Source of the DNA: Bacteroidota bacterium
GTDB lineage: Bacteria > Bacteroidota > Bacteroidia > Chitinophagales > Saprospiraceae
Length of the DNA: 64,000 nt
Assembly (NCBI GenBank): GCA_016124585.1
Contig: WGNL01000001.1
Coordinates: 1 to 64,000 of the forward strand
Direction: 5' to 3'
How positions within the stretch are numbered: position 1 is the stretch's first letter; each line of letters starts with the position of its first letter. This document shows positions 34,501 through 53,800 of this stretch, in pieces. The position numbers and the translations under genes are program-made. The notes below the pieces were generated by a model. The model saw only the letters and a program-made list of their open reading frames with translations. It was not told where the DNA came from and ran no database searches.

Positions 34501-37500
34501 GACCCAGATGGAACGCTTAACAACACCACTCAAGTTGTAATTTCAAACGGTAAAATCACGAATATAGGTAATTCGTGGTGTTTGACGGGTAGCAACTGCT
34601 CGTTAGATGTTGATTTTGGCTATCGTCCAAATTACACCAACAGCGTTTCGGGTACTGTCTGTCTTGATGCCGATAGTGATGGCCAATGTGACCCACTCAT
34701 CGATGACGTGCCAAATAATATCACCGTATTTGTATACGATGAACGTGGCAATGAACTTGGACAAAAGACAGCAGATCACAACGGTGATTTTATTTTTGAA
34801 TACTTGCCTAATGATACGGTGATAGTGGCCGTCAGCATGACCCAGACTCCTTTGGAGCTAACAAGCGTCACCACCTCAACAGGTGACACGCCTGCATTCG
34901 AAGTGGAAGAAGTTTCAGGCAGCACCTATCAAAAAATTGACCTGACAGGCGATGTGACGGGCGTAAATTTCGCTTTTGCATTTACGGATACATTTGACCT
35001 TGGCGACCTTCCGCTGCCATATTTGACTACTGTAAACGGTACTCGTACAGGCCCAGCCCACTTGCTTGAAGACGTTCCAACTTTGTTCCTTGGCTCATGG
35101 GTGGATGCGGAATTTTTCCCAGTAATCAATGATGATGCTTCCGGCGACGACAGCTTCGGCGACGACGAGGATGGCATTAGTTTCATAAATCCAGATAACT
35201 GGAAACCAGGGACTGTGGCACTTGGCAAAGGTGGTTCGATTTCAGCAAAAGTAACTGGCAATGGTTACTTAGTTGGTTGGATTGATTTCTCTCAAGACGG
35301 AGATTTCACCGATCCAGGGGAAATGATCGTTAACCAAGTAGTCTCCACAGGTAACTACAATTTCAATTTCGATATTCCTGCCAGCACTGACCTTTCTGGT
35401 GGGCAGGAGATTTACTCCCGATTCCGTGTGTTTGTTGATCGCCCATTCTCACCAGAAACGGCTTGCGATGGAATCGTAGTCGGTGGTGAAGTTGAGGATT
35501 ACCGCACAGATATTTGCCATAACCTGACCGACCCAGGGGCGATTGTTGGTGCAGAGACAGGTTGTGATGGATTTGATGCATCAATAATTTCTGAATCTGC
35601 AGCACCAGCGGGTGGCGGCGGCACACTTGAATACCAATGGCAAATGAGCCTTGACGATGGACTTACCTGGGCAGATATTACAGGTGCTACTGGCACAAGC
35701 TACGATCCAGGCTCCATCACCCAAACAACTCGTTACCGCCGAGGCGCATTGCGGGAGCATTGCGCAGGGTTTGTATACACAAATGCGGTAATTAAGACCG
35801 TTTTGACCAATTTCGACGATCCTGGTATCATTGCTGGTGATGAGGATAACTGCGGAATTTTTGACCCAACACCAGTACTAAGTGTGACACCTCCTAGTGG
35901 TGGCTCAGGCACGGGCACTGTTACCTACCAATGGCAACAGAGCACGGACGGAGGTACTACTTGGATGGACATTGCGTCAGCGAACCAAGAATCATACGAC
36001 CCCGGTATTATCAGCGTGACAACTAATTACCGGAGAACTTCCCGGAAAGCACCCTGCGGCGACCTCGTTTACTCGAATGTCGTTACCAAAATGGTAGCTG
36101 TCAATTTCACCAATGCTGGTACTATTGCTGGCGCAGAATCTATCTGTGGTGGCTACGACCCAGGCATCATTACAAGTGTCAGCCTCCCAACAGGTGGTGT
36201 TGATGGTTACGTAGGATATCAATGGGAGCGCAGTATCGATGGAGGAAACACATGGTCTGTCATCCCAGGTGCTACTAGCACCCAGTATAACCCAGGTACC
36301 ATTACTCAAACAACCCAGTACCGCCGTCAGGCACGCCGTGTACCATGTGGCATTTGGGTCAATTCAAATGTGATTGTCAAGGAGGTGAAAACCATTCCAA
36401 CGGCGTCCATCACTACTTTTCCAACTAGTGGCTCTGGTAATTTGTGTGAATTGACGGACTATGTTTTCGCCGCATCAAATGCCGGTTCAGGCGTGACTTA
36501 CAGCTGGGATTTTGGTACTTATGCAACATCGCCTTCCGGTGCTGGTCAGGGACCACTCAGTGTTCAATTTGATGTGCCGAACGGCAGCTCAACCACATCT
36601 ACTACTGTGAAATTGACAGTTTCAGAAAATGGCTGTCAAATCACTGACAGCAAGGTGTTGAGTTTGCGTCCTGAAATTGTAATCAACAGCGTTTCAAAAG
36701 TCAATCCGACTTCTTGTAGCGCCACAGATGGTAGTATCACCATAATGGCTACCTATCCTGCCAGTTCCACCATCGTTTACAGCATAAACGGTGGAGCTAC
36801 ATGGACTTCCTCTAGTTTTATTGATAATTTGGGAGCAGGAGTTTATGAGGTAATGGCACGTTATAATACAGGTGATTGTGCGGAAAGCTACGGAAACGTA
36901 TCACTTTCCGATCCACCACCTGCCGCAACGATGTCAGTTTCTTCTTTGGAGGAATGCACAGGTCAATCATTTACTGTTAGTGCTTCGGCAGCTACTGGGT
37001 CTCCTGTTTACGGATGGTTCTTTGGCAATGGTGCATCTCCAAGTTCAGCTTCAGGTGCGGGCCCTCACAATGTTACTTTTTCGACAGGTGGCCCAAAGAC
37101 AATTTCCTTGCAATTGAAGGAAAGTGGCTGTGTGGCAATCATTGATACAACAGTGGTGGTGGTTGAAAACTTCAGCGATGGAGGCTCAGTACTTGGTGGC
37201 GGCGTATTGTGCAGTGCCTATGATGCACCTGCTTTTACAGTAGGTTCCAACCCAGCTGGTGGTTACGGCGGCTCTACGCTGTATCAATGGGAAAAAAGAA
37301 CAAGCACAGGCCCAGGTACTTGGGATGCATGGACAGATATAGCTGGCGCTACTAGTGCCACATACGATCCAGGTAATGTGGGTTCTTCTACCGAATATCG
37401 CCGCAAAACTCGTCGCAACCCATGTTCTAGCTGGGTATATTCCAACACATTAACAACAACACTAGTGCTTAAGCCAGTGCTTGGTGATGATAACTATTTC

Positions 37501-40500
37501 ACGGTTTGTCCGGGCTTCCCGTACGCTGATAACGTGAACATTAATGACTATTCACTTTCTAATCCAAGTTTCAATATCTTGACTTGGCCGACCAACGGTG
37601 CGCTTGATTTCGATAACGATGGTGAGATACTTTACGTGCCGAACTCTACTTATTGTGGTACGGACCATTTCAAATATTACGTTTGCAACGAAGGCAGTGT
37701 TTGTTGTGACACGGCGTCAGTAATTATCGACCTGACCGATAACGAGGCTCCAACCATTGCCAACGTGCCACCAAGCATAACCATTAGTTGCGATGACCAG
37801 TTGCCATTGGCAGAATCGGTAGCAGTGGTTGAAAATTGCCAAAACGTTTCGATTGGTGTTGACCAATTCATTACGCAAGGTTCTGATTCCTGCGCACTCC
37901 ACAACTATGAATACATCAGGATGTGGAACGGTGTTGACTACTGTACAAATACAGCTCAAGCTACCCAAGTGATAACGGTGCAGGATAAAACCTCGCCGGA
38001 TATTTACCGGATTTATACCTTACCGAATGGCAAAAAACTGGTAGCTGGTGTGATGGAAAACGTTTCAGAATACTGGAAAACAGTGGCGTTGCCTGTAGCA
38101 TTCAACACGCAGCCCGTTGTATTCACACAGTTATCATCCCGCAATGAAGCCTCTGCTGCCATTGTTCGGATGCGCAACGTATCCACTACGCAGTTCCAAA
38201 TAAGAATCCAGGAGGAGGAAGCTGCCGACGGAACGCATTTGAAAGAAAATGTGGCTTGGATAGCTTTCGAAAAAGGTGCTATCAGCGGCAGTGTTCCATT
38301 TGAAGTGAATACTTGGCTGTTGAACAACGCAACATCAACCAAGACATTTGCCCAAGCATACCCTGGTATCCCGAATTTCATCGCCAGCGTTCAAACTAAC
38401 AACGACAGTGACTTGGCAAATCTTCGATATAGCAACCTGACTAGTAACGCTGTGAACGTCAAGCTACAAGAGGAAACTTCGGCGGATGCTGAAACAACAC
38501 ACAATTTGGAAACGGTAGGTTATCTGGCCATTTACAATTCAGCTCAATTCAAAACAAATACCGGTGAGGTATTTGGCGAGGTTGGCAAAGTAAGTGTCAC
38601 ACAGGATATCGTGAAGGTTGACCTTCAGAACAAATACCACAACCCTGTAGTGATTGTTGGAGGGACTTCCTACAACGACAGTGCTCCAGTGACTGTGCGG
38701 GTGTTTGATGTGACTGAAACATCATTCCAAGTGAAGCTGGATGAGTTCGATTATGAAGATGGGGTACACAGCGTTGAAACTTTGTCCTATTTAGTAGTTG
38801 AGGGCAGTTTGCCACTCGATAAGTTCATTTCCTGCGATAATATCCCAGCACCGCTTGCGATAGGTACGCAAATAATTGCAAAGGACAACTGTGATGCGAC
38901 CATCATGCTTCGGATGGTGGAGAACACACCAAACTTCGACTGTGCTTCAGATACGATTTTGACCCGTACTTGGTCTGTTGTGGATGATTGTGGTAATGAA
39001 ACTTCACTTACAGAAACATACACACTGCGTGATACAGAAGCTCCAACCTTTGTTGCACCAGCAAATGTAACCATCGTTTGCGGAGCAAACAAAGATGACC
39101 TGACCCTGACTGGCATACCTACTAGCCTGCATGACAACTGTGCGGATGAGGTGTTCCCAGTTTACGGTGATGATATGACCAATCTCTTGGGATGCAACGG
39201 GTATATATTGCGTACTTGGACAGTAGAGGACAATTGTGGCAACATAACGTCAAAAGTCCAAATCATAACCATTGCGCCTCCAACTGACACGGACAGAGAT
39301 GGTGTGACTGATTTCTACGATTTGGATGATGACAACGACGGCATTCCTGATGCTATCGAAGGCACTATAGACTCAGACGGAGATGGCATTCCTAACTCAT
39401 TGGATTTGGATAGCGACAATGACGGTATTCCAGATTTGATTGAAACTGGTCGAGTTGACATCAACGGAGATGGTGTTATCGACATCGTGGGAACACCGGG
39501 TTGGGATCACGACCATGATGGATTTGCTTTTGGTTATGACGGCAGTGACATCAGCTCAAATGCAGGTGCATCCGTGACATTTGACCCAGGTTCTTTGACC
39601 AATGACCGGGATCAAGACGGCGTGCCTAACTATTTGGACCTTGACAGTGACAACGACGGTATTCCTGACCTTGTGGAAGTTGGTGGTGCAGACGTCAATG
39701 GAGATGGTGTCATCGACTATCCAATTCCAAATGACCCGACCTCGATGCCGGATATTGACTCGGATGGTTTCCATGATAGCCTTGATTCTGATGATGATGG
39801 GGTGCCAGGAGCAGAGGCAACTAATCAACCTTTCATCAAATACAACGGAATAGCCTATACGGGTGGTCTCACTTCTGAAACACCAGATTTTGATGGTGAT
39901 GGTGTTCCAAATTTCTTGGACAGCGACAGTGACAATGACGGTGTGCCTGACCTCATCGAAGCAGGTGGCGTAGATACGGATGGAGACGGTAAGCTGAAAT
40001 TGAACGGTTATTTTGTAGATAACAACAACGATGGTTTGTTCGATATTTATGTGACCAACTCACTTATCCGCACGGAAGCCGGTTCTTCCAGTGGCAACCT
40101 GCGCCCACATGATTATGACAACAATGGAACGGCCTATATTGGTGCAGATGCCGATTTTGATGGCATGCCAAACCATGTTGACCGTGACAGCGATGGCGAC
40201 CATATTTACGACATCTTGGAAGCTGGACTATCCAGCCGTGACCTCAACAAGGATGGGGTAATCGACAACTTCACTGATGGCACACATTCCGGCTTCGATG
40301 ATTTGATTGAGGCTTCAGGTAATATTATCACTGAACAAGATGGAGCCACATTTGATGGCCGACCAGAAGACAGTGGCGACGCCGACGATACGCCTTATCT
40401 TTCTACTCAAGCTGATGGTGCCTTTGGTATCGTAAATGGCAACCCTGATGTGGATGAAGATGGTGACGGTTTATTGAATCTTTACGATGTAGACTCCGAC

Positions 40501-41625
40501 AATGACCTTATCATGGACTACATTGAAGACAAAAACTTCAACGGAACGGTCAACGTTGGTGAAACTAACTTGTATAACCCTGACTCAGATTTCGACGCAA
40601 TTCGTGACGGTATCGAAGACCGCAACCGCAACGGCAAACGTGACGAAGGTGAAACCGATCCACTCAACCCGAATACTGACGGTGACTTGCTGGATGATGG
40701 GGAAGAGGATGACAACAAGGACGGCATCGTGGATGCAGGTGAAAGCAGCGCTCTTGACCCTTGTGACCCATACTTAAGCGATGCCTGTAAAGGCGTGGCT
40801 GTGAATGTGCGGGTAAAACTACTCGGACCACTCGTAGGTAACACAGATACAGTAGCCATCATGAGGGATGACCTTCGTGAAAAACTGTTCTTGACGACGA
40901 CGGAGCCATACACCAAATTGACGCATATAAATCACGTAGGTGTGCCGGACGATCCAAATACACCTACAACTGGAGGTTCAACGGACTACAAGGAATCCAT
41001 TACACCTGGTCTGCTTTACATTACAGGTCTTGATGCACCAGTGGATTGGGTGCTCGTGGAATTGCGTTCTGCAAGCTATCCAGACAGCGTAATCGCAAGT
41101 AGGGCTGGAATCCTTCAGGCAGATGGGGATGTTCGGGATGTAAATGATATTGACTACTTGGTGTTCCCTGAAGTTAGGGCAGGTGAATACTTCGTATCAG
41201 TGCGTCACCGGAATCACTTAGGCGTAATGACGGAGGACCCATACTTGCTCACGCCAACCATTACAAATATTGATTTCACTGATCCAACATTGCATGTTTA
41301 TGGCAATGATTCCAGATATGACCGAAATGGTGAAATGACTTTCTGGCCCGGTGATTTCAACAACGATGGAAGTGTAATTTATCAAGGCCCAGCCAACGAT
41401 ATAACCTACTTGTTCCAGACAGTACTTTTGTATCCTTCGAACACCCAGACACTGGCGAATTTCATTGTGCAAGGCTACAAACAATCTGATTTGAACCTTG
41501 ATGGACAATGTATCTACCAAGGCCCGAACAATGACCGGGCAATGGTACTGATTAACGCCATCTTGGCTTCACCAGAGAACGTATTACACCTTGGCAACTT
41601 CATCGTCCATGAAAAACTGCCATAA
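28516..41625 (+). CDS. Giant secreted adhesin-like protein (SdrD-B, GEVED, Ig-like, HYR, TSP3, dockerin-like end)
   Basis: A signal peptide (~1-21) opens this 4369-residue protein. Eight SdrD-B/Cna-B-like modules begin near residues 516, 1264, 1416, 1528, 1656, 1776, 1912 and 2042, each with a pattern such as GKVYNDINGNG. A GEVED domain follows (~2215-2335). Four copies of a ~95-residue Ig-like unit (YQWQ, DGG, YRR, ARR-PC) lie at ~2340-2625 and ~2890-2985, with PKD-like segments between. Then come a cadherin-like domain (~2990-3075), HYR-type domains, an H-lectin-like double unit (~3160-3440) and an Asp-rich thrombospondin-3-like calcium-binding array (~3592-4090). A final shared domain ends in two EF/dockerin-like IYQGP repeats and HEKLP. 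It is probably a surface or extracellular adhesin or matrix protein. There is no canonical T9SS domain. Confidence 0.92.
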   Translation: MNRILLTLTGILFCISGLIAGNPNGDLKIEMLDYYNLVVDHNIQTPNGASPRAVYIGVKICNTGNNPIDDVFANIGNFSASTPGEYPVTTISSGPYSGNFSFTHEGGIKDATRYIGTLAPGECVVQYWLLSYPLLDLNGNKVCGSKPDQTDDLKLKYDVWATANDAGVALKANDSKTVQCRAMISAMANKIWPNTTSKVPNEFLAAFPDKQLGWRQNTPANGSVPGSTIVLEGIWFDLGNIRKGFDNDGDYVPDYNFLLQPVGNPALFDANCFRLVKVHGLIVIKLQGQGIKTIEFTDKMHFSGIPEDNTGAVGMVYYEFAVLNGPCSSQLTPYQEVASGSNNEKHNGDYGTPGGSLTAGPPSGILVTNAPASTQVGQTIQVSVSYNNNGNQPIGLPNLQNNLVYQVEIPDYTAYVAGSAASSNSLPNGTNATLLYSSDGGLNWETTEPTPAATITDIQWWLDKPLEPGQTGIVTYDIAVSSSYNGTVLKPSGGVGLGNSTPFVSDEAAVMIEGNYSITGKVFTDNGDGNGGILGDGIQNGAESGIPNVTVWLYVDSDGDGIADENELIAQTAVTQPNGSFAFDNLSDANYVVKINTSDNDIPDGLSSTTASEIAVGNLNNGSPTISVGFTALVEVTNSLAGNSSVYENDIVNYDINVKNRTYAEDTDNSSSVVAWASVLDPSTTYNITPNNMLGPPDDHLANFSSNWSSKAVVKGFNFGTQQGEIEKVELLFSLCTDRKVNNDKLQAKITLENGTTVVVPNPIWSKNSSPSLNDYVGVPYLGFLTVDLSDVQDWDWSVFDPEWKVTIEGVQYGSYDGARVWIDAIGVKVTTTCCTTEGVGEPGDCISTVQHAPFSYKYDTDKLEFISASDEPDELNPGELKWEDVGPLYPGQTKNFNLSFRALQPELSSCALSAPECLSIPNPWTQCEIASSGYSYDKTVNGNVTWSSILSSVPTNNVATSIRLRGTGTITVPSGDLVVNAAYFVVDGPTLVIANGNLILNQYACVLFHNGTFRVKGNVDQSGNQSFFCNYNETMEIGDEASNGFFNSTGVATTGYFKNNGGNRRLENVCLNVTSDYTLLGSSGLDYLINVCGEIGDKGATNAASGTVDAGEGGSISISANCTMFTCELTVVGNIGVNSGGTLMGCNSDFRTTNGNFSNAGTFKGCDNTIWVNDGKSITNTSNWTAVVAKRRGNSSMSTAYIPVNSSLVSITPEFGNCTCAESNSANGLIVTTAKVEGAKNCENLDVQNSSDTESITVLDRGSISGIIYGDKDNDGWQGATGVEPGVDYYLEGVEIKLFACVSSNGRPIYPASNTNKRCDQSPNNGSWEVLQTDTTNENGFYRFEGLENGYYYTEVTSSTVPGKISQSADPDQTGVKCTSCNDTWKNSTDKISRAGIIGGANDFYEVNFGYYLDELISGKVYNDINGNGIIDEGDVPMQGVTVKRVSGGCSSCPTTVTDATGKFVFGALSAGTSYNIQVVISSLPAGNVWLETYESDGTINNSIVRTLAAGTQSTDNIYGFRQAGASDIGGTVYYDWHGNAFINAGDEGIPDVKLNLFRDSNNNGVRNPKEPIVGITTTDINGKYNFGSLPAGSYIVLVDEATLPIYPYETEDPSESGICSICDAQGEIYNLNGTADRTDIDFGYTVSPASRPNARVQGVVFEDADANGIRHFSEFGLPGISVSLVGDVNGDGIKVAMKSKTSAFDGSYYFEALLDGDYSVVVTEDDDNLPLHYKASTLTLRNFRIAGGKLIEIDGINCVTCAGASIDFGFTPAGSIESYVFFDANGNGTQDWSEKGIVNAIVYLCEGEDVACTLANASKIDTTDANGLFVFEDLASSYYTVAVELASLPTGLTLTADPSTDGIPCYSPLDIADPYYSFLNAGCDSRYGEVRIYLGSKAKNVNFGYKPSGIIGDLVWVDYNLDGVQGSNEPGIPRVEIRVVNATSFSYNGTNYTPGTYRDTIFTDFDGIYSFVNLPDATWTVNVVAPVDLVPVFDPDGTLNNTTQVVISNGKITNIGNSWCLTGSNCSLDVDFGYRPNYTNSVSGTVCLDADSDGQCDPLIDDVPNNITVFVYDERGNELGQKTADHNGDFIFEYLPNDTVIVAVSMTQTPLELTSVTTSTGDTPAFEVEEVSGSTYQKIDLTGDVTGVNFAFAFTDTFDLGDLPLPYLTTVNGTRTGPAHLLEDVPTLFLGSWVDAEFFPVINDDASGDDSFGDDEDGISFINPDNWKPGTVALGKGGSISAKVTGNGYLVGWIDFSQDGDFTDPGEMIVNQVVSTGNYNFNFDIPASTDLSGGQEIYSRFRVFVDRPFSPETACDGIVVGGEVEDYRTDICHNLTDPGAIVGAETGCDGFDASIISESAAPAGGGGTLEYQWQMSLDDGLTWADITGATGTSYDPGSITQTTRYRRGALREHCAGFVYTNAVIKTVLTNFDDPGIIAGDEDNCGIFDPTPVLSVTPPSGGSGTGTVTYQWQQSTDGGTTWMDIASANQESYDPGIISVTTNYRRTSRKAPCGDLVYSNVVTKMVAVNFTNAGTIAGAESICGGYDPGIITSVSLPTGGVDGYVGYQWERSIDGGNTWSVIPGATSTQYNPGTITQTTQYRRQARRVPCGIWVNSNVIVKEVKTIPTASITTFPTSGSGNLCELTDYVFAASNAGSGVTYSWDFGTYATSPSGAGQGPLSVQFDVPNGSSTTSTTVKLTVSENGCQITDSKVLSLRPEIVINSVSKVNPTSCSATDGSITIMATYPASSTIVYSINGGATWTSSSFIDNLGAGVYEVMARYNTGDCAESYGNVSLSDPPPAATMSVSSLEECTGQSFTVSASAATGSPVYGWFFGNGASPSSASGAGPHNVTFSTGGPKTISLQLKESGCVAIIDTTVVVVENFSDGGSVLGGGVLCSAYDAPAFTVGSNPAGGYGGSTLYQWEKRTSTGPGTWDAWTDIAGATSATYDPGNVGSSTEYRRKTRRNPCSSWVYSNTLTTTLVLKPVLGDDNYFTVCPGFPYADNVNINDYSLSNPSFNILTWPTNGALDFDNDGEILYVPNSTYCGTDHFKYYVCNEGSVCCDTASVIIDLTDNEAPTIANVPPSITISCDDQLPLAESVAVVENCQNVSIGVDQFITQGSDSCALHNYEYIRMWNGVDYCTNTAQATQVITVQDKTSPDIYRIYTLPNGKKLVAGVMENVSEYWKTVALPVAFNTQPVVFTQLSSRNEASAAIVRMRNVSTTQFQIRIQEEEAADGTHLKENVAWIAFEKGAISGSVPFEVNTWLLNNATSTKTFAQAYPGIPNFIASVQTNNDSDLANLRYSNLTSNAVNVKLQEETSADAETTHNLETVGYLAIYNSAQFKTNTGEVFGEVGKVSVTQDIVKVDLQNKYHNPVVIVGGTSYNDSAPVTVRVFDVTETSFQVKLDEFDYEDGVHSVETLSYLVVEGSLPLDKFISCDNIPAPLAIGTQIIAKDNCDATIMLRMVENTPNFDCASDTILTRTWSVVDDCGNETSLTETYTLRDTEAPTFVAPANVTIVCGANKDDLTLTGIPTSLHDNCADEVFPVYGDDMTNLLGCNGYILRTWTVEDNCGNITSKVQIITIAPPTDTDRDGVTDFYDLDDDNDGIPDAIEGTIDSDGDGIPNSLDLDSDNDGIPDLIETGRVDINGDGVIDIVGTPGWDHDHDGFAFGYDGSDISSNAGASVTFDPGSLTNDRDQDGVPNYLDLDSDNDGIPDLVEVGGADVNGDGVIDYPIPNDPTSMPDIDSDGFHDSLDSDDDGVPGAEATNQPFIKYNGIAYTGGLTSETPDFDGDGVPNFLDSDSDNDGVPDLIEAGGVDTDGDGKLKLNGYFVDNNNDGLFDIYVTNSLIRTEAGSSSGNLRPHDYDNNGTAYIGADADFDGMPNHVDRDSDGDHIYDILEAGLSSRDLNKDGVIDNFTDGTHSGFDDLIEASGNIITEQDGATFDGRPEDSGDADDTPYLSTQADGAFGIVNGNPDVDEDGDGLLNLYDVDSDNDLIMDYIEDKNFNGTVNVGETNLYNPDSDFDAIRDGIEDRNRNGKRDEGETDPLNPNTDGDLLDDGEEDDNKDGIVDAGESSALDPCDPYLSDACKGVAVNVRVKLLGPLVGNTDTVAIMRDDLREKLFLTTTEPYTKLTHINHVGVPDDPNTPTTGGSTDYKESITPGLLYITGLDAPVDWVLVELRSASYPDSVIASRAGILQADGDVRDVNDIDYLVFPEVRAGEYFVSVRHRNHLGVMTEDPYLLTPTITNIDFTDPTLHVYGNDSRYDRNGEMTFWPGDFNNDGSVIYQGPANDITYLFQTVLLYPSNTQTLANFIVQGYKQSDLNLDGQCIYQGPNNDRAMVLINAILASPENVLHLGNFIVHEKLP

Positions 41626-41701: not shown

Positions 41702-41740
41702 AAAGCCCCGGTGGAAGTGATTCCGTCGGGGCTTTTTCTT
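41702..41740 (+). terminator. Intrinsic terminator of the first giant gene
   Basis: AAAGCCCCG and CGGGGCTTT pair, with an inner GGAA/TTCC extension, and five T follow. It lies about 75 bp after the stop codon. Confidence 0.85.
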
Positions 41741-41870
41741 TCTGTTGATTAAGAAGTATTTTGAAGCCCAATTGGCAGTCTTTAAAGAAAAACATTACCT
41801 GCATTTCTTAATCAAGGAAGCATTTTTGCCATCGGCCATGACTAATCAAGGCTTGCTATTGCAATTGACT

Positions 41871-44085
41871 TCAATATGTATCGGGAAAATTACTTTCATA
41901 GCTTTTCAACTGCTTCTCGATTTTTGTAAACCAACCGACTGCCCAATCCAAGTCAGGATGTCCTTCAGGAAAGCACCTCTGCAAATTGGCCACCGCCTGT
42001 TCCACTTGCAGAAGAGCTAAATTTGGTTGGTTCTTTTCAAAATAGATAATGGCCAAATTAACCAATGAAATAGCAAGATTAGTATGTTCCTTCTCCAATA
42101 CTTTTTCCCAAATAGCAATGGCATTCTACTGCCATTCGAAGGCTGCATCGAGGTCGCCACTTTATTGGTAAATCTGCGCAAGGTTGTTATGAGAAGTTGC
42201 AACTCCTGGGTGGTTTTCGCCAAAGCTTCTTGCCAATTATACAATGCTTTTAGCTGCCACATTATTGCATCATCGAAATTGCCTTTTTAACATGTGTTGT
42301 ACAAAGGATATTTGTCAAAATAGCTGTTCGTTCATAGTGCGTTAAGTTTTTAGCCAACACTATGCACATTGATAGCCATGCAAATGCCAGCGCTGGGTTT
42401 CTAGATTTATTCTTACCAATTGAATATTTATCGATAAAAAAATCAACCATTTCTATCCATGCCTCCACACTGGGCTTCTCTTTCTTTCGAATCACTTCTT
42501 GTAGCACCGGGTGCATATAAAAACCTTTTCACTGGGTGCTTCTGGTTCGAGTTGAGGGCAGGTAGGGGGCAGTGCTGGCAGTTTTTCAAGTAGGCCTTTT
42601 TCTGTTAGGCCATGCAGCAATAGAAATAGGTAGTCTTCGTCCGTGCCTTCCTTTTTAGCAAACATCTCCACCAGTAAAAAAAGGTTGCTACCAAACGGGT
42701 TTCAAGCTTAGATTGGCTTGGAGCCAACACCCTTCTTCACTCAAGTATACAAGGTTGGTATCGAAAAGATAGCTAGCTTAATTAGCAATGCGCTGGTGTT
42801 CATGGGTGTTGTGCGCTGAGTCGACTTCGGCTTTAGTTTCAAGGTGACTAAGGCCCTCTGTTTCTAAATGTTTCAACATATTTTTGGGTGCCCAACCTTG
42901 CTTTTCAGCAGTCTTCGCCAGCAGCTCAACTACAAGTGCGTGCCGCCCGACTAATGCAAGGAGCGTATCGAGGGTAGATTGAGCTATGTTAATTGGTATC
43001 GCTAGTGAATCGTCCAATTTTGCCGATATGCAATGGGCGGGAACAGTTCACGGGCTATATCAAGCGCCATTGTGCCCACATGATGACATGTAAAACGATC
43101 GTCGTATTCCCTTGCAATAGGGTTTTCCACCTTGGGGTAGACGGCAGGTGGGCATGCTTGGCGGCATCTGATACATCAGCAAATGTGTTCAGGTTGTCCA
43201 CAATGAGAAGGTTTTGGCCGGCAAGCTTGTCCATCGCCAATAGCAGTTCCTCAAACTGCGTTTCAGTGCTGTTCTCAAGAAATCGGGTAAGTTCTTGTGT
43301 GTCAAAGCCAAGAGTTTTGTAATTGGACACTTCCCGGACAAGTTCAGCGGGGAGACTATCCATGAAGTTTACCCAAGCGATGTGTTAATACAGATGGGCT
43401 TTGGTTTCGATGAAATTGCCCGCCAAAGTGCTTTTCCCAATGCCACCCATGCCATTTAGCAGTAAAAGATGAATGACTTTTTTCAGATGCTCCGCAATGG
43501 CTTCAAGGTCAGCTTTTCTTTCAAGTACGAGATGTTCGGGTAAAGGTGGGCGTCAAGTAGGGGAGAGGTATATGGTCTTATGTGATTTAATGTTGGTATT
43601 GGATTTTGCAGATGCAATAATGTCGTATCGGTCGGACAATTGGAAATTGGAATTGCTTGTCAGCTCTGAAACATGAAGGTATTCAGTTTGGAAATGCCTG
43701 ATTTCTTTCAATCTTTCTATAAAATTATACCTAATGTCAATATCTCATTTTGTTCTAAGGCGAAAAGGCTCGGTTTTTTCATAGACATAGATTATTGGCT
43801 TGCCTGTTTTCAAAATTTGGCTTGAACAGCTTTAAACTCTTCACTTGTGTGCATGCCTACTTTCCTCTAAACATTACCCCCAGCAAATCACATCGTTTTA
43901 GTGATTTATTATAATCATTCTGTTTCCGAGTAGGTGAGAGGGCGTCGCTATGGTCTTCCCAATGAACAAGTTTAAAATGAATGCCTTTCTTTTGCGGCGT
44001 TCATTTTTGATTAAGGTTTTCTCAAAGTCGTTCTCTTTTTAGCTAATAATAATGATGAGGTAAGGAATATCTGAATAGTTTTCAT
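41871..44085 (-). pseudogene. Decayed STAND-type NTPase: TIR/DUF4062-like N-terminus, NB-ARC-like P-loop, winged helix, TPRs
   Basis: Reading the minus strand from ATG 44085 and switching frame where needed recovers one protein of roughly 730 residues. It starts MKTIQIFLTSS. An LVHWEDHSDALSPTRKQNDY segment and KTGKPIIYVYEKTEPF follow, as in TIR/DUF4062-like N-terminal domains joined to NTPases. Then come a P-loop NGMGGIGKSTLA (~43422-43457), a Walker B-like LLIVDNLN, LVGRHALVVELLAKT, a winged-helix-like LTEKGLLEKL to HPVLQEVIRKK, and TPRs ending near 41871. Lesions include frameshifts near 44040, 43985, 43858, 43815, 43115 and 43025, in-frame stops in RTK-DIDI, SPT-RPP and HLY-HIAW, and more towards the 3' end. 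Proteins of this architecture often act in phage defence or signalling. Neighbouring genes are intact, so this is genuine decay rather than poor sequence. Confidence 0.85.
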
Positions 44086-44743: not shown

Positions 44744-44773
44744 AAAAGGCAGCGCATTATGCGCTGCCTTTTT
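44744..44773 (-). terminator. Intrinsic terminator of the second giant gene
   Basis: AAAAGGCAGCGCA and TGCGCTGCCTTTTT form a perfect stem around TTA. On the minus strand the stem is followed by TTTTGTTTTT. It lies 40 bp after the stop of the giant gene and would work in both directions. Confidence 0.88.
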
Positions 44774-44812: not shown

Positions 44813-47800
44813 CTAAGGCAATTGTTGGACAATAATATAGTTTGTGAGTAGATTAACATTGGATGGAGCTTTTAAGATTGAGTTTAAAAGCAACATAGAG
44901 CGGTCGTTAGCCGGACCTTGATATATGGTTTGTCCATCCATGTTTATATCGCTCGTTTTGTACCCATTTACCACAAAGTTTGCCAATTGATTGACATTAA
45001 GCGGTTCCAGCAATACCGTGAAGAACAATGTATTGATATCATTGTTTGGACCTTGGTAAATGGTCTGGCCATCACTATTCAAATCACCCGGCCACATCGC
45101 ATTTACCCCATTAATGGCAATTTGAGACTGCATTCCATAAGTGGAAGTGGAGGGGTCTGAAAAATCAACTGCCGTAGGTACTGGTGACAACATCCGGGGT
45201 ACCAAGGTTGCTACACCAAGATGGTTTCGATGGCGAACAGTAATATAATATTCGCCACTTGGCATCGAATCGAATCGGACGTACGAAAAGCCATCTAAAT
45301 CGACAATGTCTCCATCACGTTGCAGCAAAGCCGAGCGGGTCGCCACTACTTGCTGTGGGTCAAGACTATTACGCAGTTCAATGAACATCCAATCCACAAT
45401 CGCATTAGGCCCTGTGATATTGAAAACACTGGTATCCACTACTTCCAGCCCACCTTGACTACCCACATGGTGGAAATTCTGCATAGCTTGATAAGGCTCT
45501 TTTACTGGCAAATATCCTTTTGACCGGAGGTAATCCGACATGATAGGAGTGACCGTATTGCCGATAAGAGGGCCAGCCATACGGGTGTTTATCGATAAGC
45601 TGACACCAACACAAGCGGGTGTTGCAATTGGGTCGCATGGGTTTCGAGGGTCACTTTCTGAACCATCCACCATGCCGTTTTGATTTGAATCCTCAACACC
45701 ATCGTTGTAGCCATCGTTGTCAGTGTCTTCATTCAATGGGTCGGTTTCCACACCTGGGTCGTAATGCCCGTCATGATTGGCATCTTCCGTTCCATCGGAA
45801 ATAAAATCACCGTCTGTGTCTGAATTGAGATAATTGGTTTCACCTGTGTCAGTAATGCCGTTTCCATTTGAATCCTCAATTTCATCCAACAAAAGATCGT
45901 TGTCACTATCGGTATCCAAGAAATTCGGAATGCCATCACCATCATCATCAAGGTCTGGTTGACCGTTATTTTCCCCAAAAGTTCCATCCGCAAGCACGCT
46001 GCCATAAGCAGTTGAGTTGGCATCGGCATTGTCCTGCGGTTTGCCATCCGGCACCGAGCCATCCCCATCAGTGAAAATTGTTCCTGAAGAACCATCATTC
46101 AAGCCATCGCCATTGGTGTCAATAATGGTGTCAATATGGCCATCATGGTCAAGGTCAAGAGCGCCGTATCCGATTTCGATTACATCGTTGATGCCGTCAT
46201 TGTCACTATCGGTATCTTGCTGGTTTGGAATGCCATCATGGTCTGCATCGGCGCTGTTATAAGCAGAACCATCGCCATCGTCGTCATCAGGTAAGCCATC
46301 ATTGTTGGCACCATCTGAGTCAGTTGTGATTAGGGCATAAGTTTCATAGATATCATGAAAACCATTACCGTTGGTATCCAAAAAGTCATCGCTGTCGATA
46401 CGGCCATCACCGTCCTTGTCCACACCTCCCACTTCAATGAGGTCAACAATGCCGTCATTATCACTGTCCAAGTCAATGAAATCTGGTACGCCGTCACCAT
46501 CAGAGTCAGGGCCGAGGCCCACATTATTACCTCCATAAGTTCCATTGTCATTGGTTATGAGTGCATCACCTGGGTTGTCAATGCCGAATATTGAATTGTC
46601 ATCTGGATCGTATGTGTCCACAAACCCATCGCCATCAGCATCTTCCATAGAGCCTGGATCGCCAGGGATTGGGTAGTCAATAATTCCATCCCCATCCGTA
46701 TCTACTCCACCTGCTTCGATGAGGTCAGGAATACCATCATTGTCGCTGTCCAAGTCAAGGAAGTTTGGAATACCATCACCGTCGCTGTCATGCTGACTGT
46801 CATATGGGTCGAAACCATCAGAAGCTGCCAGCGAGGTATTATCGTCATCAAGGTCAAACTCATTGGCAAGGCCATCGCCATCAATGTCCCAATCAGGGTC
46901 TCCAAATGAATCTACGATTCCATCCCCATTGGCATCCGTAAAGCCAGCTTCAATAATATCGGGTATGCCGTCATTGTCGCTGTCAAGGTCTTGGGCATTT
47001 GGTATGCCATCTCCATCGGTATCGCCTGTGCCTTCATCCACATCAGGGATACCATCGTTGTCATCGTCAAGGTCAAATGGGTCGGCAAGTCCGTCACCAT
47101 CTGTGTCGTTCGGATTGTAGATGATGATGATTTGCGGATGAGTAGTGGTATTTCCACAATTATCCACCAAAGTCCAATTACGTATCACATACCCAGAACA
47201 CCCATTTCTAAAACTGTTGTCATCAGTGTAAGTGGCCTCTAAACCCGTCGAGCAATTATCCGATTCATCTACCACATCGCCTAGGTAGGGAAGGCTATCG
47301 AGATTCACCAGGCAGGTTACTATGATGTCAGCAGGTGCCGAAAATGTGGGTGGCGTGGTGTCACGCAGCGTGTACACCTGTGTCATGGTGGTAAAATTGC
47401 CGCATTCGTCCTGCACATGGAATGTGCGGGTAAACATGGTGTCGCTTGCGCAATTAAAATTAAATGGACTGTCAGTAATGGTAAGTGGCGTAGAAACGTC
47501 GCAATTATCCATACCCACAATCTGAACGCCAATGGTTGGCGGTGCAGGTATCGCACTGCATTCTACCTCCCGGTCGAAAGGGATACTGCCCTCGACGACC
47601 ATGTAGCTCAAATTTTCTATGAGATGGTATCCATCAAGGTACATCCATTCTTGAATCTGGACTTTAAAACTATTTGGGGTAATATTTGATGCCCGTATTA
47701 TACTTGGTTGTAGGCCATTGAAGGTCATGCCACCCAGCACTACGACTGGATTGTGGTATTGATGCTGAAGGTTGACTGTGATGGTGGTGCTGTCCAAATT

Positions 47801-50800
47801 GATTTTGCCAGTTTCACCGATGATTTCGCCAGCCTGATTTTTCAAATCGCCCGAACCACTTAATGCGATATACCCTACAGTTTCAAAGCCGTGATTTGTT
47901 TCAGGGTCAAGTGAAGTTTCTTCTTCGCAAAAGACTTTTGCTTGGGTAGAGGAAAGTGAAGTCAAGCGCAAGCTGACTGGGTCTTTTTCATTGAAAGATT
48001 GTATCGTACCAATGAAGCAGGGCGTTGGCTTTGGTGTAGCAAAGCTGATTGTCGCCGAGCTATTGCTCACTAGTTTAGTGTTGATCTCGTAGGGTAGGGT
48101 GCCGGTCACTTCTCCTTTTTCCATCGCAATCCATGCGACGCTTTCCAAGCCGTGGATGCCGTCTTCATTCTCTTCTTCCTGCAATCTCATTTTAAATTGA
48201 GAAGTGGAAACATTTTGTAACCTAACCACTACAGGCGTCGGGTCATTCTTTGTCACAATTTGAGCAAAAACAACTGGTATGCTCGAAAACTGCACCGGAA
48301 ATCTTACCGTCTTCCAGCGTTGTGATACATTTTCCATCACACCTCCCACCATTTTTTTGCTATTTGGCATTGTGTAAATCCGGTAAATATCAGGTGATGT
48401 GATGTCCTGAATATTGATGACTTGGTTCTCAGAAGCATTGTTCCCACAATAGTCGCTTCCTGTCCAAGTACGTGTGAGAGCATAGGAATAAATGGAACAA
48501 CTGTCCAGGGTTCCTTGGTTGGACGCTTCGTCCATTCCCAAGATGATTGTGTGACAGTTTTCGCTTGCATCCACAATAGGAGCCAAAGGAATTTCATCAT
48601 CGCAGCTGATGGTCACATCTGCTGGGATATTGAGCAATGCAGGTGGTTCATCATCTGACATGTCAATTACCACTTTGGCAGTAGCGCAGCAGGTTGTACC
48701 ATTGTTGCAGACTCGGTAAGTGAATTCATCCGTTCCGCAAAATGAGGCATTGGGTGTGTAAACGAATTCACCGTCAATGTCCAGGTCAATTGTACCGTTG
48801 ATTGGAGGCGTTTCAACGGAATAAACGGGATTGGATAAATTGATGTCGTTTAGTGAAACATAGTCGAAAAACAGAATGCCAGGGCAGGCTGAAGTGTAAA
48901 TGTCATCCTTTGGTTCAGGTAGGTTCGAAAGCCGTTTTAGGACTTCATTTGAGAATACCCAACTTCCACAAGGCATTCTCCGTGCTCCTCTACGGAATTT
49001 AGAGGAAGCTGAAATCAAGCCCGGTGCGTAGGTCGTTCCATTTGCACCAGCAATATCCGTCCAAGCGGTCCAACCGCCGAATCCATCGTCTTCTGATACT
49101 TGCCACTGATATTCAATTGTACCGCCAGAGCCTCCACTAGGCATGGTAACTGAGGTGGTTGGGGTGGTGTTTGGTATATCACAGAGGTCTTCATTGCCTG
49201 CAATCAAACCACCGGAAGTGTAGTTGTCCACAATTGTTATCATGGTATCAACATAACCGGTACAGAAGTTTTCCCTGATGAACAATTGTACTGTCTGTGT
49301 GCCTGCGTTACTGAATGTGACAGAATGGGGCCCCAAACCTACTGCGGTAGCAGGTGTAGCACCCGGGCCAAAATCCCACTCAAAAATTGACCCTAAACTA
49401 TCCGTTTTGATGGCTTCAAAAATCAATGCATCATCCTTACAACCTATGTTTTGTGAAACATGGATTTCCGCTGCAAGGTCGAGTGGGTCTTTCAGCGTTA
49501 CACTGCCATAGTCGTACACACAATCCCCATCATCGTAGCGCAATTTTATCTGGTAAATACCAGAATATAAGCTGTCGAAATGCAAGGGTTCATCATCCCA
49601 TGTTGTTCCGCCGTCAATACTTGCCTGTACATTGGTAAGGGCAGGGTGACTGGTGTTGATGAATATTTCACCGTTGTTGACCTCACAATCCTCTGGATGT
49701 ACAAGTGAGGTACCGGTCACAGAAATCTGTGGCCTAATATTGAATGAAATTGAATCCATATCATCGCAACCACCTACTGAGCCACTTAAAGTCACGGTAC
49801 TTGGGGTAGAAAAGGCTCCATTTGGAACGTTGAAAGTCACTACGTGTGGGCCAATGCCAGTGGCTGAACTTGGCATAGCGTATGGGCCAAAATCCCAGGC
49901 ATAAGTTGCTCCAGCACCCATGTCCGTTGCTTCGAATACACACGGAGTCCATTCACAGATGTAGCTTACGTTGTCTGGGTGCGTTGCGATCGTAAAATCA
50001 GGAGAAGCCAGCACCGTTTTTGTGACAGTATTTGAATTTATCCAAGTCGAACAAGGTGAACGCCTACTTTGCCTGCGAAATAGTGTAGTCGTGCTAATGG
50101 TGGCAGGATCGAGAGTTTCGTCAAATTCACCTGGAATAGTTACCCAAGTAGTACCTCCATCAATACTTTGTTGCCATTGGTAGGTAAATGTTCCGTCAAT
50201 ACCACCGGAAGGGTAAGCCGCATTCGATATCAAGAATGGATCGTAATTTCCGCAAGTGCCTTGGTCTCCAGAAATCACACCACCAGCATTGAAGTTTACC
50301 ACCACCATTTTAATAATTGGGTTGGAATAAATGAATGCTGTGCAAGGTGAACGCCTTGCTGCCCTGCGGTAATAGGTTGTTTGGATAATTGTGATAGGGT
50401 TATAAGTTTCTGCAGTTGCTGCAGGTATGTTTAGCCAACTAGCTCCATAATCCGTGCTGTATTGCCATTGATATTCTAAGCTTCCACCTATGCCTCCGGA
50501 TGGCACAATTACGCTCGAAATGATATCTGGGTCGAAGCTGGAACAACTGCTTTCTGCACCTGCGATGATACCGGGATCGGTGTAGTTTACCACCACCATT
50601 TTTGTGACAGTGGCAGAATAAATATTGATGGTACAAGGAGAGCGCCTTGCTCCTCTTCGGTAATATGTTGTCTGAGTTATCGAAGTTGGATTGAAGGAGG
50701 CGCTGGTTGCTCCTGCAATATCAGACCAAGTAATGCTATCCGTACTTGATTGCCATTGGTAGGCAAGTGTACCGCCTGCACCGCCTGTTGGAACAGTGAT

Positions 50801-53800
50801 ACTGAAAATATTGGAGGGGTCATAGCCTCCACAATTCATTTCATCACCCAAAATTGTTCCAGGGCTTGTGTAATTGACAATGATGGTTTTCGTAATTACA
50901 TTGGAATAAACCCATGCCAAACATGGTGATCTTCTACCAGCCCTACGGTATTGTGTAGCTGTCGAAATGGAAGTCGGGTCGTAGGTACTTGAATTTGCAC
51001 CAGCAATATCGGCCCAATTCACTCCACCATCCGTGCTCGATTGCCATTGGTATTCCGTTGTTCCAGCACTACCACCACTGGCTGGGGCAGAACTGGTTAT
51101 TAAGCTAGGGTCAAATGTTCCCGAACATGAAGCTTCATCTCCTACAATGGTTCCGCCATTGGTATGGTTAGCAATGCTGTTGACATCGATAGTTTGGGAA
51201 TTGGAGCAACCTGCAGCTGAGGTAACTGTTACCGTATAGGCACCAGCAAAAAGGTTGGTGCGGTCACCGTCGTTTCTGGCAAGGTCGGCAACCTGGTCAG
51301 CGTTCAAGCCTATTTCGTGATAGTAACGGATGTCATCCATTTGTCCCTTATAAAATGTGCCTGAGCTATTGAGTACGCTACCACCAATAGAACTACCGAC
51401 ACCTCCGTTGTTACCATGATTGCTCACCGTAGTAAAGCTGCTGGTATTCGAAGTTGAGGATGGCACACCATCAATGTACATGGTCAAATCCCCGCTGTCA
51501 AATACAGCGGCTACATGGTGCCAGTTCCCATCAGAAGGGAAGGTGGAGGAGACTTCAATAAAACCAGATTCACGAACCCTAGTAACTAAGGTATTGTTAC
51601 TGAAACGCATTGCAATACCCTTTCCACTGGTAGAGCCACCTTCATCAAATACCGTTTTAACCCCACTCAGGTTTTCAGGCTTTAGCCACATGGACAAGCT
51701 CAGCTTAGTAAATGGTTGTTCCATGAATCCATTGTCCACACTGTATCGGACATAGGAGCTGCCATTAAAATAGATTGAATAGTTTCCTTCAATTGCATCT
51801 TTTGAATAGATGAAACTACCCGATGTACCATTACTGTGGTGGTCATTTCCTGAAACGTCATTCAGATTTTCTTCAAAAGTCCACCATGCAGTTGGCACCA
51901 TATCTGACCAAACGTATGAAAGTGGCAAGTCAAGCGATAAGGACGTCAAATCAATTGCACCACCACCACTTCCACAGTTTTCATTGGTAACAACATAGGA
52001 TGCCGTCAGCCCATCTGAACAATCAGGATCGTCGCAGTCAGTTAAGCCGTCAAAGTCATCGTCTAGTCCATTATTGCAAACCTCAGGGTGACAAATAGGT
52101 GCAAGGTTTGCACCTGGAATGATGTTCCAAGAGGAATTGGAAGGGGTTTTCCATTGAACTTGGAAGTGGTCAAGTCCACCACCTTCTTTTTGTACCAATT
52201 CGATGTAATATTTCGTGCCGGCTGTCAAATAGATGGACGAGGAAGTCTGCTGGGTATACTTGGTATATTCTGTGATATTTGTCCAACCCGGCACATAGGC
52301 AATCACCGATTTGTTTAGCGGGCTGCTATTTGAACTGAGGTAGAGCCTTGAATTGTCATCGGAAGTAACGTTGAATGTATAATTTCCTGTTATGCTTGGC
52401 TGTAAGTATCCCAAAACCCGGGTACCGTAATTGTCATCAATGTTTGCTGGACCTTGAAACGAATACAGCATACCGGTCTCGTTGTAATTGTTCGGGAAAT
52501 TGGGGTTGGTCATAAGGTCGTACATATTCGACCCACCGATTCCTGTCCAACGCTGATAGGTAATGCCCCCAGGCCCACAAGAGACTTCTGTCTCACAATT
52601 TACTTTCGATAAATTGACGGCATCCACGGCAACACCTACATTATTCCGGCTATTGCTGATGCTGAAATTTGATATCGGATTGAGTGAACTGTAGGTAAAT
52701 GTATAAGTGTACTTTTTCCAACTCAAGTTGTTCATGCTTGCACTTGCTGGTACCGACCATTTCTCCACAGTCGTGTATCCACTGGAAAATGTAATTCCCA
52801 AGTCAACAACTGTGGGCAATTGAGGGTCTGTCCCACCGTCAGGCAGGCCACTACTATTCAGTGAACCAGCCCAACTTGCAGCATAAAAGCATAGCGTATA
52901 ATCTTCGCCATCTTCCATCTTTAAGTTGTCCGTGAAATCTACGATAGAAAACCACCCGTCTCCATTTTGGGGAAGCCATAAAAAATAATCCCCTTCCGGA
53001 TTGTTGACCGTAGCTGGAATATCCTTGACAATGAAAGAATATTTGTTGGACTGCGTGCGCCAAGGAGCGGCAGTTGATGAGTTGTTATTGGAGATGGCTG
53101 CCACGCTCTTTCCATCCAAAGTGTATGGAAATGAACTGGTATTCAATTCTTCAAAACCACCATTTGGCAGCATGTTGTCTGAACAACCACAACCAAGTGG
53201 AAAATTGGTCCCTCCAAGCGAATTGGCAAGACTTAGACAAAAATCATCTACATACAACCTTCTAGAGGTAGAGCCGGATTTGTACCCACCAATTTCAGCA
53301 TAAGCAGCATTAGATGGTGCTGTGCCGGTAAGTGTAAACTGCTTATATTCAGTGACATTTGATAAAATGGGCTGAATTATTGAATGGATGACATTCCCAT
53401 TGTAATCAACCCAATCTAAAAAGACTTCAGCATAAGAAGGAGCCGAAGTAGTTACTTTCGCCCAGACTGTCAATTCGTAAGTTTGAGAAGGTTGAATGGC
53501 AAGTCTTTGTGTGAGCGTCGTCGAATTGCTCACAAATTCAGCGGCCGAAGTTCCTGAGTGTGCGTCTGTTGAATTGGAGATTGACCCACCTGATATAGAC
53601 CAGTTATTCATGCCATTTTCAAAACCAGTGTTTTGTGCTAGGATACATGAGCCAATGGTAGGTATGGTTTCTTGAACACAGAAGTCATCCACTTTTAACC
53701 TGCCTGAAGAGCCCGATTTAAACGCATAGACGTCGATATAATATGCACCAGTAGGTGCTGTGGCACTTGCATAGTAGGCAGCATAGTAGGTTGATGTTAC

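What the first reader, a model, noticed from the sequence alone, without database searches (positions are those of the whole stretch)
41871..44085. Decayed TIR/DUF4062-like NTPase-TPR gene hidden between two giant genes
No single frame longer than about 100 codons survives here, yet frame-switching on the minus strand recovers a coherent protein in the right order: an MKTIQIFLTSS start, a WEDHSDALSPTR and KTGKPIIYVY N-terminal domain, P-loop NGMGGIGKSTLA, LLIVDN, LVGRHALVVELL, HPVLQEVIRKK and TPRs. This is the architecture of STAND defence/signalling proteins. At least eight lesions are visible. It points to a former defence gene inactivated in place, possibly with intact relatives elsewhere in the lineage.
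Basis: partly seen in the sequence, partly recalled or inferred. Interest (0 to 1): 0.7.

Follow-up and report, generated by a model that had tools for sequence, protein, structure and literature searches.

The report
Broken immune-type gene between giant genes
Between two giant surface-protein genes of an environmental bacterium lies the wreck of a gene for an immune-type switch protein, riddled with frame breaks and stop signals, while open relatives survive elsewhere in the same genome; it is an ordinary pseudogene of a known kind.

Summary
On the minus strand, 44085 to 41871, a frameshift-tolerant alignment recovers one protein in order: TIR-like (DUF4062/NPHP3-like) domain, NB-ARC NTPase, TPRs. 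Scores against three open relatives are 404, 319 and 252, against maxima of 63, 55 and 57 in 200 shuffles. Merging two alignments gives about 10 frame changes and 6 in-frame stops. The same procedure on open relatives' DNA gave no stops in 18 of 18 comparisons and no frame changes in 17 of 18; both flanking giant ORFs are open. General sequence error is therefore unlikely, but reads could not be checked, and frame changes lie near short homopolymers more often than expected.

The same genome holds four open relatives, one with the N-terminal domain. That domain, modelled from a relative, has a TIR/nucleoside-deoxyribosyltransferase fold. A 2026 preprint reports DUF4062 proteins as TIR-like NADases with antiphage activity (PMC13174449), so a former abortive-infection gene is the likeliest reading, by inference.

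The gap between the giant genes differs among four genomes of the genus (this one and three others); one holds IS3-type remnants and no detectable trace of this gene. Verdict: an ordinary pseudogene of a known architecture.

The parts
41871..44085 (-). whole pseudogene, from the ATG at 44085 to the terminal stop at 41873-41871
   Evidence: three-frame translation; frameshift-tolerant alignments
43560..44085 (-). remains of the N-terminal TIR-like (DUF4062/NPHP3-like) domain; 4 frame changes, stop at 43747 (a further stop at 43555 lies in the linker just behind it)
   Evidence: alignment to L145; 12 of 15 columns invariant in the 15 intact domains are kept, including both glutamates of the T-x-E-E-F motif
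42930..43549 (-). remains of the NB-ARC NTPase; stop at 43387, 2 frame changes
   Evidence: PF00931 on the fragment; alignment A1; alignment to L171
43421..43456 (-). Walker A / P-loop NGMGGIGKSTLA
   Evidence: translation, alignment A1
43193..43210 (-). Walker B-like LLIVDN
   Evidence: translation, alignment A1
42290..42929 (-). remains of the region between NTPase and TPRs, with HPVLQEVIRKK (LVGRHALVVELL lies across its upper border); stop at 42780, 2 frame changes
   Evidence: alignment to L171; that this region holds the ARC / winged-helix part is recalled from the NB-ARC family, not tested
41874..42289 (-). remains of the C-terminal TPRs; stops at 42164 and 42128, 2 frame changes
   Evidence: PF13424 E 1.2e-28 on the read-through fragment; 70% DNA identity over 42051-42231 with an open TPR reading frame at a contig edge of congener G011
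41702..41735 (+). terminator-like hairpin after the 4369-aa giant gene
   Evidence: the similarity to congener L177 runs through this hairpin (window 41225-41750)
44744..44772 (-). terminator-like hairpin after the 3148-aa giant gene
28516..41625 (+). flanking giant gene 1 (4369 aa; SdrD_B, HYR_4C, GEVED domains), open
44813..54259 (-). flanking giant gene 2 (3148 aa; Laminin_G_3, PA14, CBM_4_9, HYR_4C domains), open

Best explanation
Window 44085-41871 (minus strand) is a pseudogene. Its ancestor encoded one STAND protein of about 740 residues: an N-terminal TIR-like effector domain, a central NB-ARC switch, and C-terminal TPRs as the likely sensor. Most likely mechanism of the ancestor (inferred from family knowledge and a preprint on DUF4062): the TPRs hold the NTPase closed; a phage product bound by the TPRs lets it exchange ADP for ATP and oligomerise; the clustered TIR-like domains then cleave NAD+, and the infected cell stops growing or dies. 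Here the gene no longer encodes that protein. It sits in a gap between two convergent giant genes, each followed by a terminator-like hairpin, and the content of that gap differs between related species; the gene either arrived after the split from the examined congeners or was lost from them, and then decayed. Shown: domain order, lesions, open relatives, predicted fold of a relative's N domain, difference of the gap between congeners. Inferred: NADase activity, defence role, order of arrival and decay.
For: Alignment scores 404/319/252 against shuffle maxima 63/55/57. About 10 frame changes and 6 stops, against 0 stops in 18 of 18 and 0 frame changes in 17 of 18 control comparisons with open relatives' DNA. 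The giant genes on both sides, 22,557 bases, are uninterrupted ORFs. In a sample of 396 genomes of the order, 37 (own counted) match the NB-ARC profile at E<=1e-12, and the window's is the only listed match with a stop inside. Of 139 ORFs that match either domain, 12 match both, which are nine distinct genes (three were fetched twice); being stop-to-stop frames they are open by construction, and one of them (L152) lies in this genome. Model of a relative's N domain: pLDDT 85, pTM 0.80, VIA Z 13.8 (rmsd 2.6, 131 aligned) to the TIR part of a SPARTA TIR-APAZ protein. DUF4062 reported as TIR-like NADase with antiphage activity (PMC13174449). The window has lost 3 of 15 and 5 of 22 columns that are invariant in the intact N domains and NB-ARC stretches. 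Codon-position GC of 748 recovered codons (0.51/0.34/0.42) is like that of the same-genome relative L005 (0.51/0.31/0.39).
Against: No reads were available, so assembly error is disfavoured, not excluded. 7 of 12 listed frame-change sites have a short homopolymer within 15 bases, against 24% of all positions in the pseudogene and about 12% in the giant genes; natural slippage and sequencing error would both do this. Loss of conserved columns is not unique to the window: intact rows L006 (22 of 33 kept), L004 (22 of 26) and L076 (15 of 19) also miss several. The best-scoring relative, L171, has a different N-terminal region and no match to the N domain. No defence context was seen, but I scanned only four window proteins, with Pfam alone. 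Of 7 neighbours of relatives that I scanned, only one (L153:3471-4568) matched a PADLOC model. The window N-terminal fragment itself matches no Pfam family. The other three open same-genome relatives are not among the ORFs that match the N domain.
Confidence: 0.86

Rival explanations
1. The gene is intact in the organism and the breaks are local sequencing or assembly errors.
For: Of 12 listed frame-change sites, six have a run of five or more identical bases within 15 bases and one more a run of four G; by chance 24% of positions in the pseudogene would. No reads to check.
Against: The six in-frame stops would need errors too; 22,557 bases of flanking giant ORFs with 104 such runs show no break, although run density there is about half that of the pseudogene (104 in 22,557 against 20 in 2,212); 3 of 15 invariant N-domain columns and 5 of 22 NB-ARC columns are changed as well.
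Confidence: 0.07
2. The broken stretch still makes one or more short functional proteins, for example the 109-codon NB-ARC piece or the TPR tail.
For: Pieces are open for up to 109 codons and keep conserved motifs; codon-position composition is still gene-like.
Against: The P-loop and the Walker B-like motif are separated by a stop at 43387; the domains are cut internally; promoter-like sites are no more than chance (8 found, 9.5 in shuffles; sigma-70 consensus only). Ribosome sites were not searched.
Confidence: 0.05
3. The ancestor was a transcription or developmental regulator of the MalT / nephrocystin-like STAND type, not a defence protein (a rival to the function, not to the pseudogene).
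For: The best NCBIfam match of relatives L005, L006, L034 and L035 is FxSxx_TPR, below its cut-off; TPR_NPHP3 matches the tail, below cut-off; the two flanking genes are surface-protein genes.
Against: TIR domains and STAND NTPases recur in reported prokaryotic conflict systems (PMC13174449, PMC7159879); the same-genome relative L152 matches a PADLOC candidate-defence model over its N domain (PDC-S60, E 3e-7); the family is patchy: 37 of 396 genomes at E<=1e-12.
Confidence: 0.2

Closest known systems
TIR-AP-ATPase(NB-ARC)-TPR proteins of prokaryotic conflict systems (eLife 2020, PMC7159879; search passages seen)
   Same: Kinds of parts: AP-ATPase with N-terminal TIR, and AP-ATPase effectors with C-terminal TPRs, are described there.
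   Different: The passages tie them to VMAP ternary and peptide-processing systems (FxSxx, RXD, acidic types); FxSxx_TPR (NF040586) matches the window fragment only at 24.5 bits against a cut-off of 300, and the two flanking genes here are giant surface-protein genes. The gene here is broken.
DUF4062 TIR-like NADases, including Swarozyc (PMC13174449 preprint; abstract, part 1 of Results, Discussion and search passages read)
   Same: A relative's N domain is predicted to have the TIR-like fold, with an invariant Glu near the start of the helix after the third strand.
   Different: KpSwz carries a winged helix-turn-helix auxiliary domain rather than NB-ARC plus TPR; activity here untested; the gene is broken.
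Eukaryotic NPHP3 / NWD1 / TEP1 STAND proteins
   Same: DUF4062-type domain with a STAND NTPase (PMC13174449 Discussion); that NPHP3 ends in TPRs is recalled and fits the Pfam name TPR_NPHP3. PF25022 (NPHP3) matches 8 of 15 relatives' N domains at E<=0.1.
   Different: No NPHP3-type match reached its curated cut-off where scores are shown; no descent claimed.
PADLOC PDC-S60 (candidate defence protein)
   Same: N domain of the same-genome relative L152 matches profile positions 5-169 of 906 (E 3e-7).
   Different: Only the N domain matches; the two window fragments scanned do not match it.

Membership tests
NB-ARC (AP-ATPase) STAND NTPase | profile match over the curated cut-off | tested here: met
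   PF00931 26.7 bits against a cut-off of 23.5 on the read-through fragment
NB-ARC (AP-ATPase) STAND NTPase | Walker A and Walker B-like motifs | tested here: met
   NGMGGIGKSTLA and LLIVDN, aligned with relatives
NB-ARC (AP-ATPase) STAND NTPase | C-terminal superstructure repeats | tested here: met
   TPR_12 E 1.2e-28 on the read-through fragment
NB-ARC (AP-ATPase) STAND NTPase | one continuous reading frame | tested here: not met
   about 10 frame changes and 6 stops
DUF4062 / TIR-like NADase domain | profile match over the curated cut-off | tested here: not met
   no Pfam family for the window fragment; PF13271 absent from the genome. Relatives: 8 of 15 at E<=0.1; the two DUF4062 scores seen (19.2 and 16 bits, L041 and L033) are below the cut-off of 24.7. 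So 'TIR-like, akin to DUF4062', not 'a DUF4062 member'
DUF4062 / TIR-like NADase domain | TIR-like fold | tested here: met
   on a relative, not on the window itself: model of the L112 domain, pTM 0.80; VIA Z 13.8, rmsd 2.6, 131 aligned to SPARTA TIR-APAZ; DNPH1 13.7. Foldseek alone is weaker: best E 3.3e-4, TM about 0.5
DUF4062 / TIR-like NADase domain | conserved glutamate of the active site | tested here: inconclusive
   an invariant Glu in the T-x-E-E-F motif near the start of the helix after strand 3 is still readable in the window; that it is the catalytic one is inferred from position
DUF4062 / TIR-like NADase domain | NAD+ cleavage | not testable with these tools
   needs a bench assay on an intact relative
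Swarozyc | winged-HTH auxiliary domain that binds phage portal | not tested
   no profile of that domain was searched; the stretch behind the N domain is NB-ARC and TPR
FxSxx-COOH system TPR protein (NF040586) | score over the curated cut-off | tested here: not met
   24.5 bits on the window fragment, 109-152 bits on four relatives (L034, L035, L005, L006), cut-off 300
Pseudogene | several frame-disrupting lesions against open relatives | tested here: met
Pseudogene | lesions real, not sequence errors | tested here: inconclusive
   flanking ORFs clean; frame changes enriched near short homopolymers; no reads available

The most novel reading that the evidence does not exclude
The gap between the two convergent giant surface-protein genes is a turnover site in this genus: because both genes end there with their own terminators, foreign DNA such as defence genes and insertion sequences can land harmlessly, differs from species to species and decays in place. 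In the four genomes examined (this one, G013, G007, G009) the gap holds, respectively, this broken TIR-like/NB-ARC/TPR gene, IS3-type remnants, an arginyltransferase-like gene with two secretion-tail genes, and a four-gene set with a GldC-like gene.
Probability: 0.25. Interest if true: 0.4.

Novelty: new member of a known kind. Interest (0 to 1): 0.27.

Why it matters
It documents a wrecked immune-type gene with open relatives in the same genome, a natural record of gain and loss of such genes. It also shows a TIR-like domain, of the kind recently tied to NAD+-based phage defence, in several settings: at the front of NB-ARC/TPR proteins, at the end of Roco-type proteins, and in short ORFs without an NTPase. 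For annotation it is a reminder that a 3-kb 'intergenic' stretch can hold a recognisable gene.

Tried and rejected
DUF4062 family search of the own genome found nothing. A first scan of the named genome collection with the 109-aa NB-ARC piece found no relative; the second, with alignment A1, kept 80 loci of 87 confirmed. The 109-aa piece alone matched 2 of 80 genomes, the own genome included; the profile was needed. Search of solved structures by sequence with the N-domain alignment gave only chance-level hits, best E 0.2. Rfam at gathering thresholds: nothing in 41500-45000. Tandem repeats at score 50: none in 41000-45500. Promoter-like and terminator-like counts equal chance; the two hairpins are taken as terminators because of their length and place. 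Pfam did not recognise three decayed transposase pieces of L177 at E<=0.001 and two of six pieces only weakly at E<=5, apart from a shortened copy of one; the IS3 label rests on tblastn against annotated plasmids (best hit 52% to a 'transposase', four of the eight listed rows named IS3 family). That the gene was IS-borne in the window was considered and not supported: I saw no transposase-like piece in the translations, but ran no dedicated search. A programmed-frameshift reading was rejected because of the number of lesions. Paper searches for a decayed STAND gene in Saprospiraceae, for bacterial nephrocystin-3-like proteins, for decay of STAND defence genes and for TIR-like NB-ARC TPR proteins gave nothing relevant as judged from titles and starts of abstracts; only this library was searched.

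Full report
WHAT WAS CHECKED. The window is the start of contig 45 of a 6.63-Mb genome. A congener in the search set (G002) has a contig of 13,364 bases, the same length as SCUG01000198.1, titled Saprospiraceae, so I take the organism to be a member of Saprospiraceae, by inference. Four read-through fragments were scanned against Pfam: NB-ARC passes its cut-off in fragment 2, TPR_12 has E 1.2e-28 in fragment 4, fragments 1 and 3 match nothing at E<=1.

IS IT MORE THAN CHANCE. I wrote a local protein-to-DNA aligner that allows frame changes (BLOSUM62, gap 11/1, frame change 15, stop 6). Against five open relatives the window's minus strand scored 212-257, the plus strand 33-43, and 20 dinucleotide shuffles at most 48. 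Of 650 ORFs, 139 matched either domain by BLASTP at E<=1e-4; over these the best was 404 for L171 (G549), then L063 321 and L145 319. With 200 shuffles the maxima were 63, 55 and 57 for L171, L145 and L152, whose observed scores are 404, 319 and 252. L171 aligns from the start of the NTPase to the TPRs; its own N-terminal region is different and does not match the N domain.

THE LESIONS. The L145 alignment covers the N domain and NTPase (44085-42784; 401 codons, 31.9% identical, 6 frame changes, 3 stops). The L171 alignment covers 43549-41907 (506 codons, 30.8%, 6 frame changes, 4 stops). Taking N-terminal lesions from the first and the rest from the second gives about 10 frame changes and 6 stops. 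Control: the same aligner on the DNA of 7 open relatives against 3 relatives' proteins (18 comparisons, reciprocal pairs included) gave no stops in any, and frame changes in 1 of 18 (two, L005 against L171). The giant ORFs on either side, together 22,557 bases with 104 homopolymer runs of the size counted, are open. So a general error rate does not explain the breaks. Against this: 7 of the 12 listed frame-change sites have a short homopolymer within 15 bases, while 24% of all positions in the pseudogene and about 12% in the giant genes do. Slippage in a decaying gene and sequencing error would both give this, and no reads could be checked. The relative with the closest DNA found in the genus, 70% over 182 columns, is at the edge of a contig in G011; there the TPR end reads open for 127 codons from the contig edge to a stop.

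HOW FAR DECAYED. Of 15 columns invariant among 15 intact N domains the window keeps 12; of 22 invariant among six intact NB-ARC stretches it keeps 17. Leaving out each intact row in turn, 11 of 15 N domains keep every column invariant in the other intact rows, and L069, L038 and L036 miss 1 and L076 4; for NB-ARC, three of six rows keep all, L005 misses 1, L004 4 and L006 11 (one search gave similar figures with the window among the reference rows). So the window has lost conserved residues, but no more than the most divergent intact rows. Codon-position GC of 748 recovered codons, 0.51/0.34/0.42, still looks like one intact relative in the same genome (L005: 0.51/0.31/0.39; the other three differ more). 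The gene is broken many times over but far from erased.

RELATIVES. With the NB-ARC profile (A1, which contains the window row and two same-genome rows), the own genome has five matches: the window and four in open frames of 695, 711, 894 and 669 codons; 37 of 396 genomes of the order, own counted, match at E<=1e-12, and the window's is the only listed match with a stop inside. The N-domain piece matches 17 of 395 genomes of the phylum sample at E<=1e-5 and 5 of 14 of the genus at E<=0.001, the own genome counted in both; there one other match, in G114 (L016), also has a stop inside, and many matches lie in frames of only 126-268 codons. Twelve of the 139 ORFs match both domains; three genes occur twice at different lengths, so nine distinct genes: L145, L018, L152, L035, L034, L112, L069, L076, L037. 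They are stop-to-stop frames, hence open by construction; L018 is only 452 codons and may be cut short. L152 lies in this genome. The relatives at 677 and 689 aa (L005, L006) start just ahead of the NTPase.

WHAT THE N DOMAIN IS. Fifteen intact domains were aligned (A2). Matches at E<=0.1: NPHP3 (PF25022) 8 of 15, DUF4062 (PF13271) 8 of 15, TIR_2 5 of 15; the modelled one, L112, matches TIR_2 (E 0.037) and DUF4843 (E 0.015) but not DUF4062. In the full-length scans where scores are shown, DUF4062, NPHP3 and TIR_2 all lie below their cut-offs. AlphaFold2 on the L112 domain: mean pLDDT 85.1, pTM 0.80, alternating strands and helices. Foldseek: nucleoside deoxyribosyltransferases and plant TIR domains, best E 3.3e-4, with TM about 0.5 and rmsd 5-7. 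VIA-align on Foldseek's candidates: SPARTA TIR-APAZ Z 13.8 (rmsd 2.6, 131 aligned), human DNPH1 13.7 (2.5, 130), plant RPP1 11.3 (4.4, 144). So the fold is TIR / deoxyribosyltransferase-like. An invariant Glu in T-x-E-E-F sits near the start of the helix after strand 3, where TIR enzymes have their catalytic Glu (position recalled); it is still readable in the window.

LITERATURE. A 2026 preprint (PMC13174449; [quoted passage not shown] it notes the STAND-like architecture of NWD1, NWD2, NPHP3 and TEP1. An eLife 2020 paper (PMC7159879; passages only) describes AP-ATPases with N-terminal TIR and AP-ATPase effectors with C-terminal TPRs in prokaryotic conflict systems. The architecture is therefore known in kind.

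SURROUNDINGS. Giant gene 1 (plus; SdrD_B, HYR_4C, GEVED) and giant gene 2 (minus; Laminin_G_3, PA14, CBM_4_9, HYR_4C) converge on the gap; their tails are similar to each other, and each is followed by a terminator-like hairpin, 41702-41735 and 44772-44744 (the total count of such sites equals chance). Congener G013 (L177) has both genes, about 73% identical in DNA, with similarity ending at window 41750 and 44815; the 3.4 kb between them hold transposase-like pieces (tblastn: 52% to an annotated transposase, others named IS3 family) and no detectable trace of this gene: alignment scores 36-50, noise level. In G007 (L206), where relatives of both giants converge (61-63% protein identity), the gap holds an arginyltransferase-like gene and two genes with a secretion tail. 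In G009 (L207) a gene-2 relative (57%) converges with a giant-like tail that is only 41-43% similar to either giant, so the pairing is less certain; between them lie a GldC-like gene, an epimerase, a secreted phosphatase-type gene and an amidase. Neither locus shows the NB-ARC gene (scores 40-51). The other ten congeners were not resolved at this gap: matches there are short and repetitive. So among the four genomes examined only this one holds the broken gene here; arrival here and loss there cannot be told apart.

MECHANISM AND VERDICT. For the ancestor, the likeliest mechanism is a STAND switch: TPR sensing, NTPase oligomerisation, TIR-like NAD+ cleavage, cell shutdown. Only the parts are shown; activity and defence role are inferred. 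Of 10 proteins scanned against PADLOC in three relatives' loci, the L152 protein matched the candidate model PDC-S60 over its N domain (E 3e-7), the L153 and L112 proteins matched TPR, Avs4 or PDC-S73 models over parts (E 1.8e-7 to 4e-4), and of the 7 neighbours one, L153:3471-4568, matched effector models. Window fragments gave only PDC-S57 at E 0.036. The finding is real, correctly described, and ordinary: a pseudogene of a known kind of protein.

Noticed in passing
L032:8022-10961, L033:915-4073, L038:1-2001: The same TIR-like domain sits at the C-terminal end of Roco-type proteins (Roc, COR and LRR domains in L032 and L033; L038 is cut and its Roc-COR nature is read from sequence, not scanned) in two congeners (G008, G010) and one other genome of the phylum (G454).
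   Followed up: partly
L153:3471-4568 and 4575-6578: In the same genome, a 366-aa protein matching a PADLOC effector model described as PN-superfamily (E 1.1e-16; nucleoside-phosphorylase-like in my reading) is directly followed by an open 668-aa NB-ARC/TPR relative, which looks like a split effector-switch pair.
   Followed up: no
L177:5591-9014: The gap between the orthologous giant genes in congener G013 holds decayed IS3-type transposase pieces, with two copies of the first ORF in opposite orientation.
   Followed up: partly
window 41487-41534 and 45039-45086: The tails of the two convergent giant genes form a 48-nt inverted repeat, 77% complementary; both proteins end in similar repeats with the word IYQGP.
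   Followed up: no
L039:6168-6893, L040:6461-7132: In two congeners (G001, G006) the TIR-like domain occurs in short open frames of 242 and 224 codons, without an NTPase in the same frame.
   Followed up: no
L016 (G114:C55:20980-21189): Another genome's match to the N domain also carries an internal stop, perhaps a second decayed copy of this domain family.
   Followed up: no
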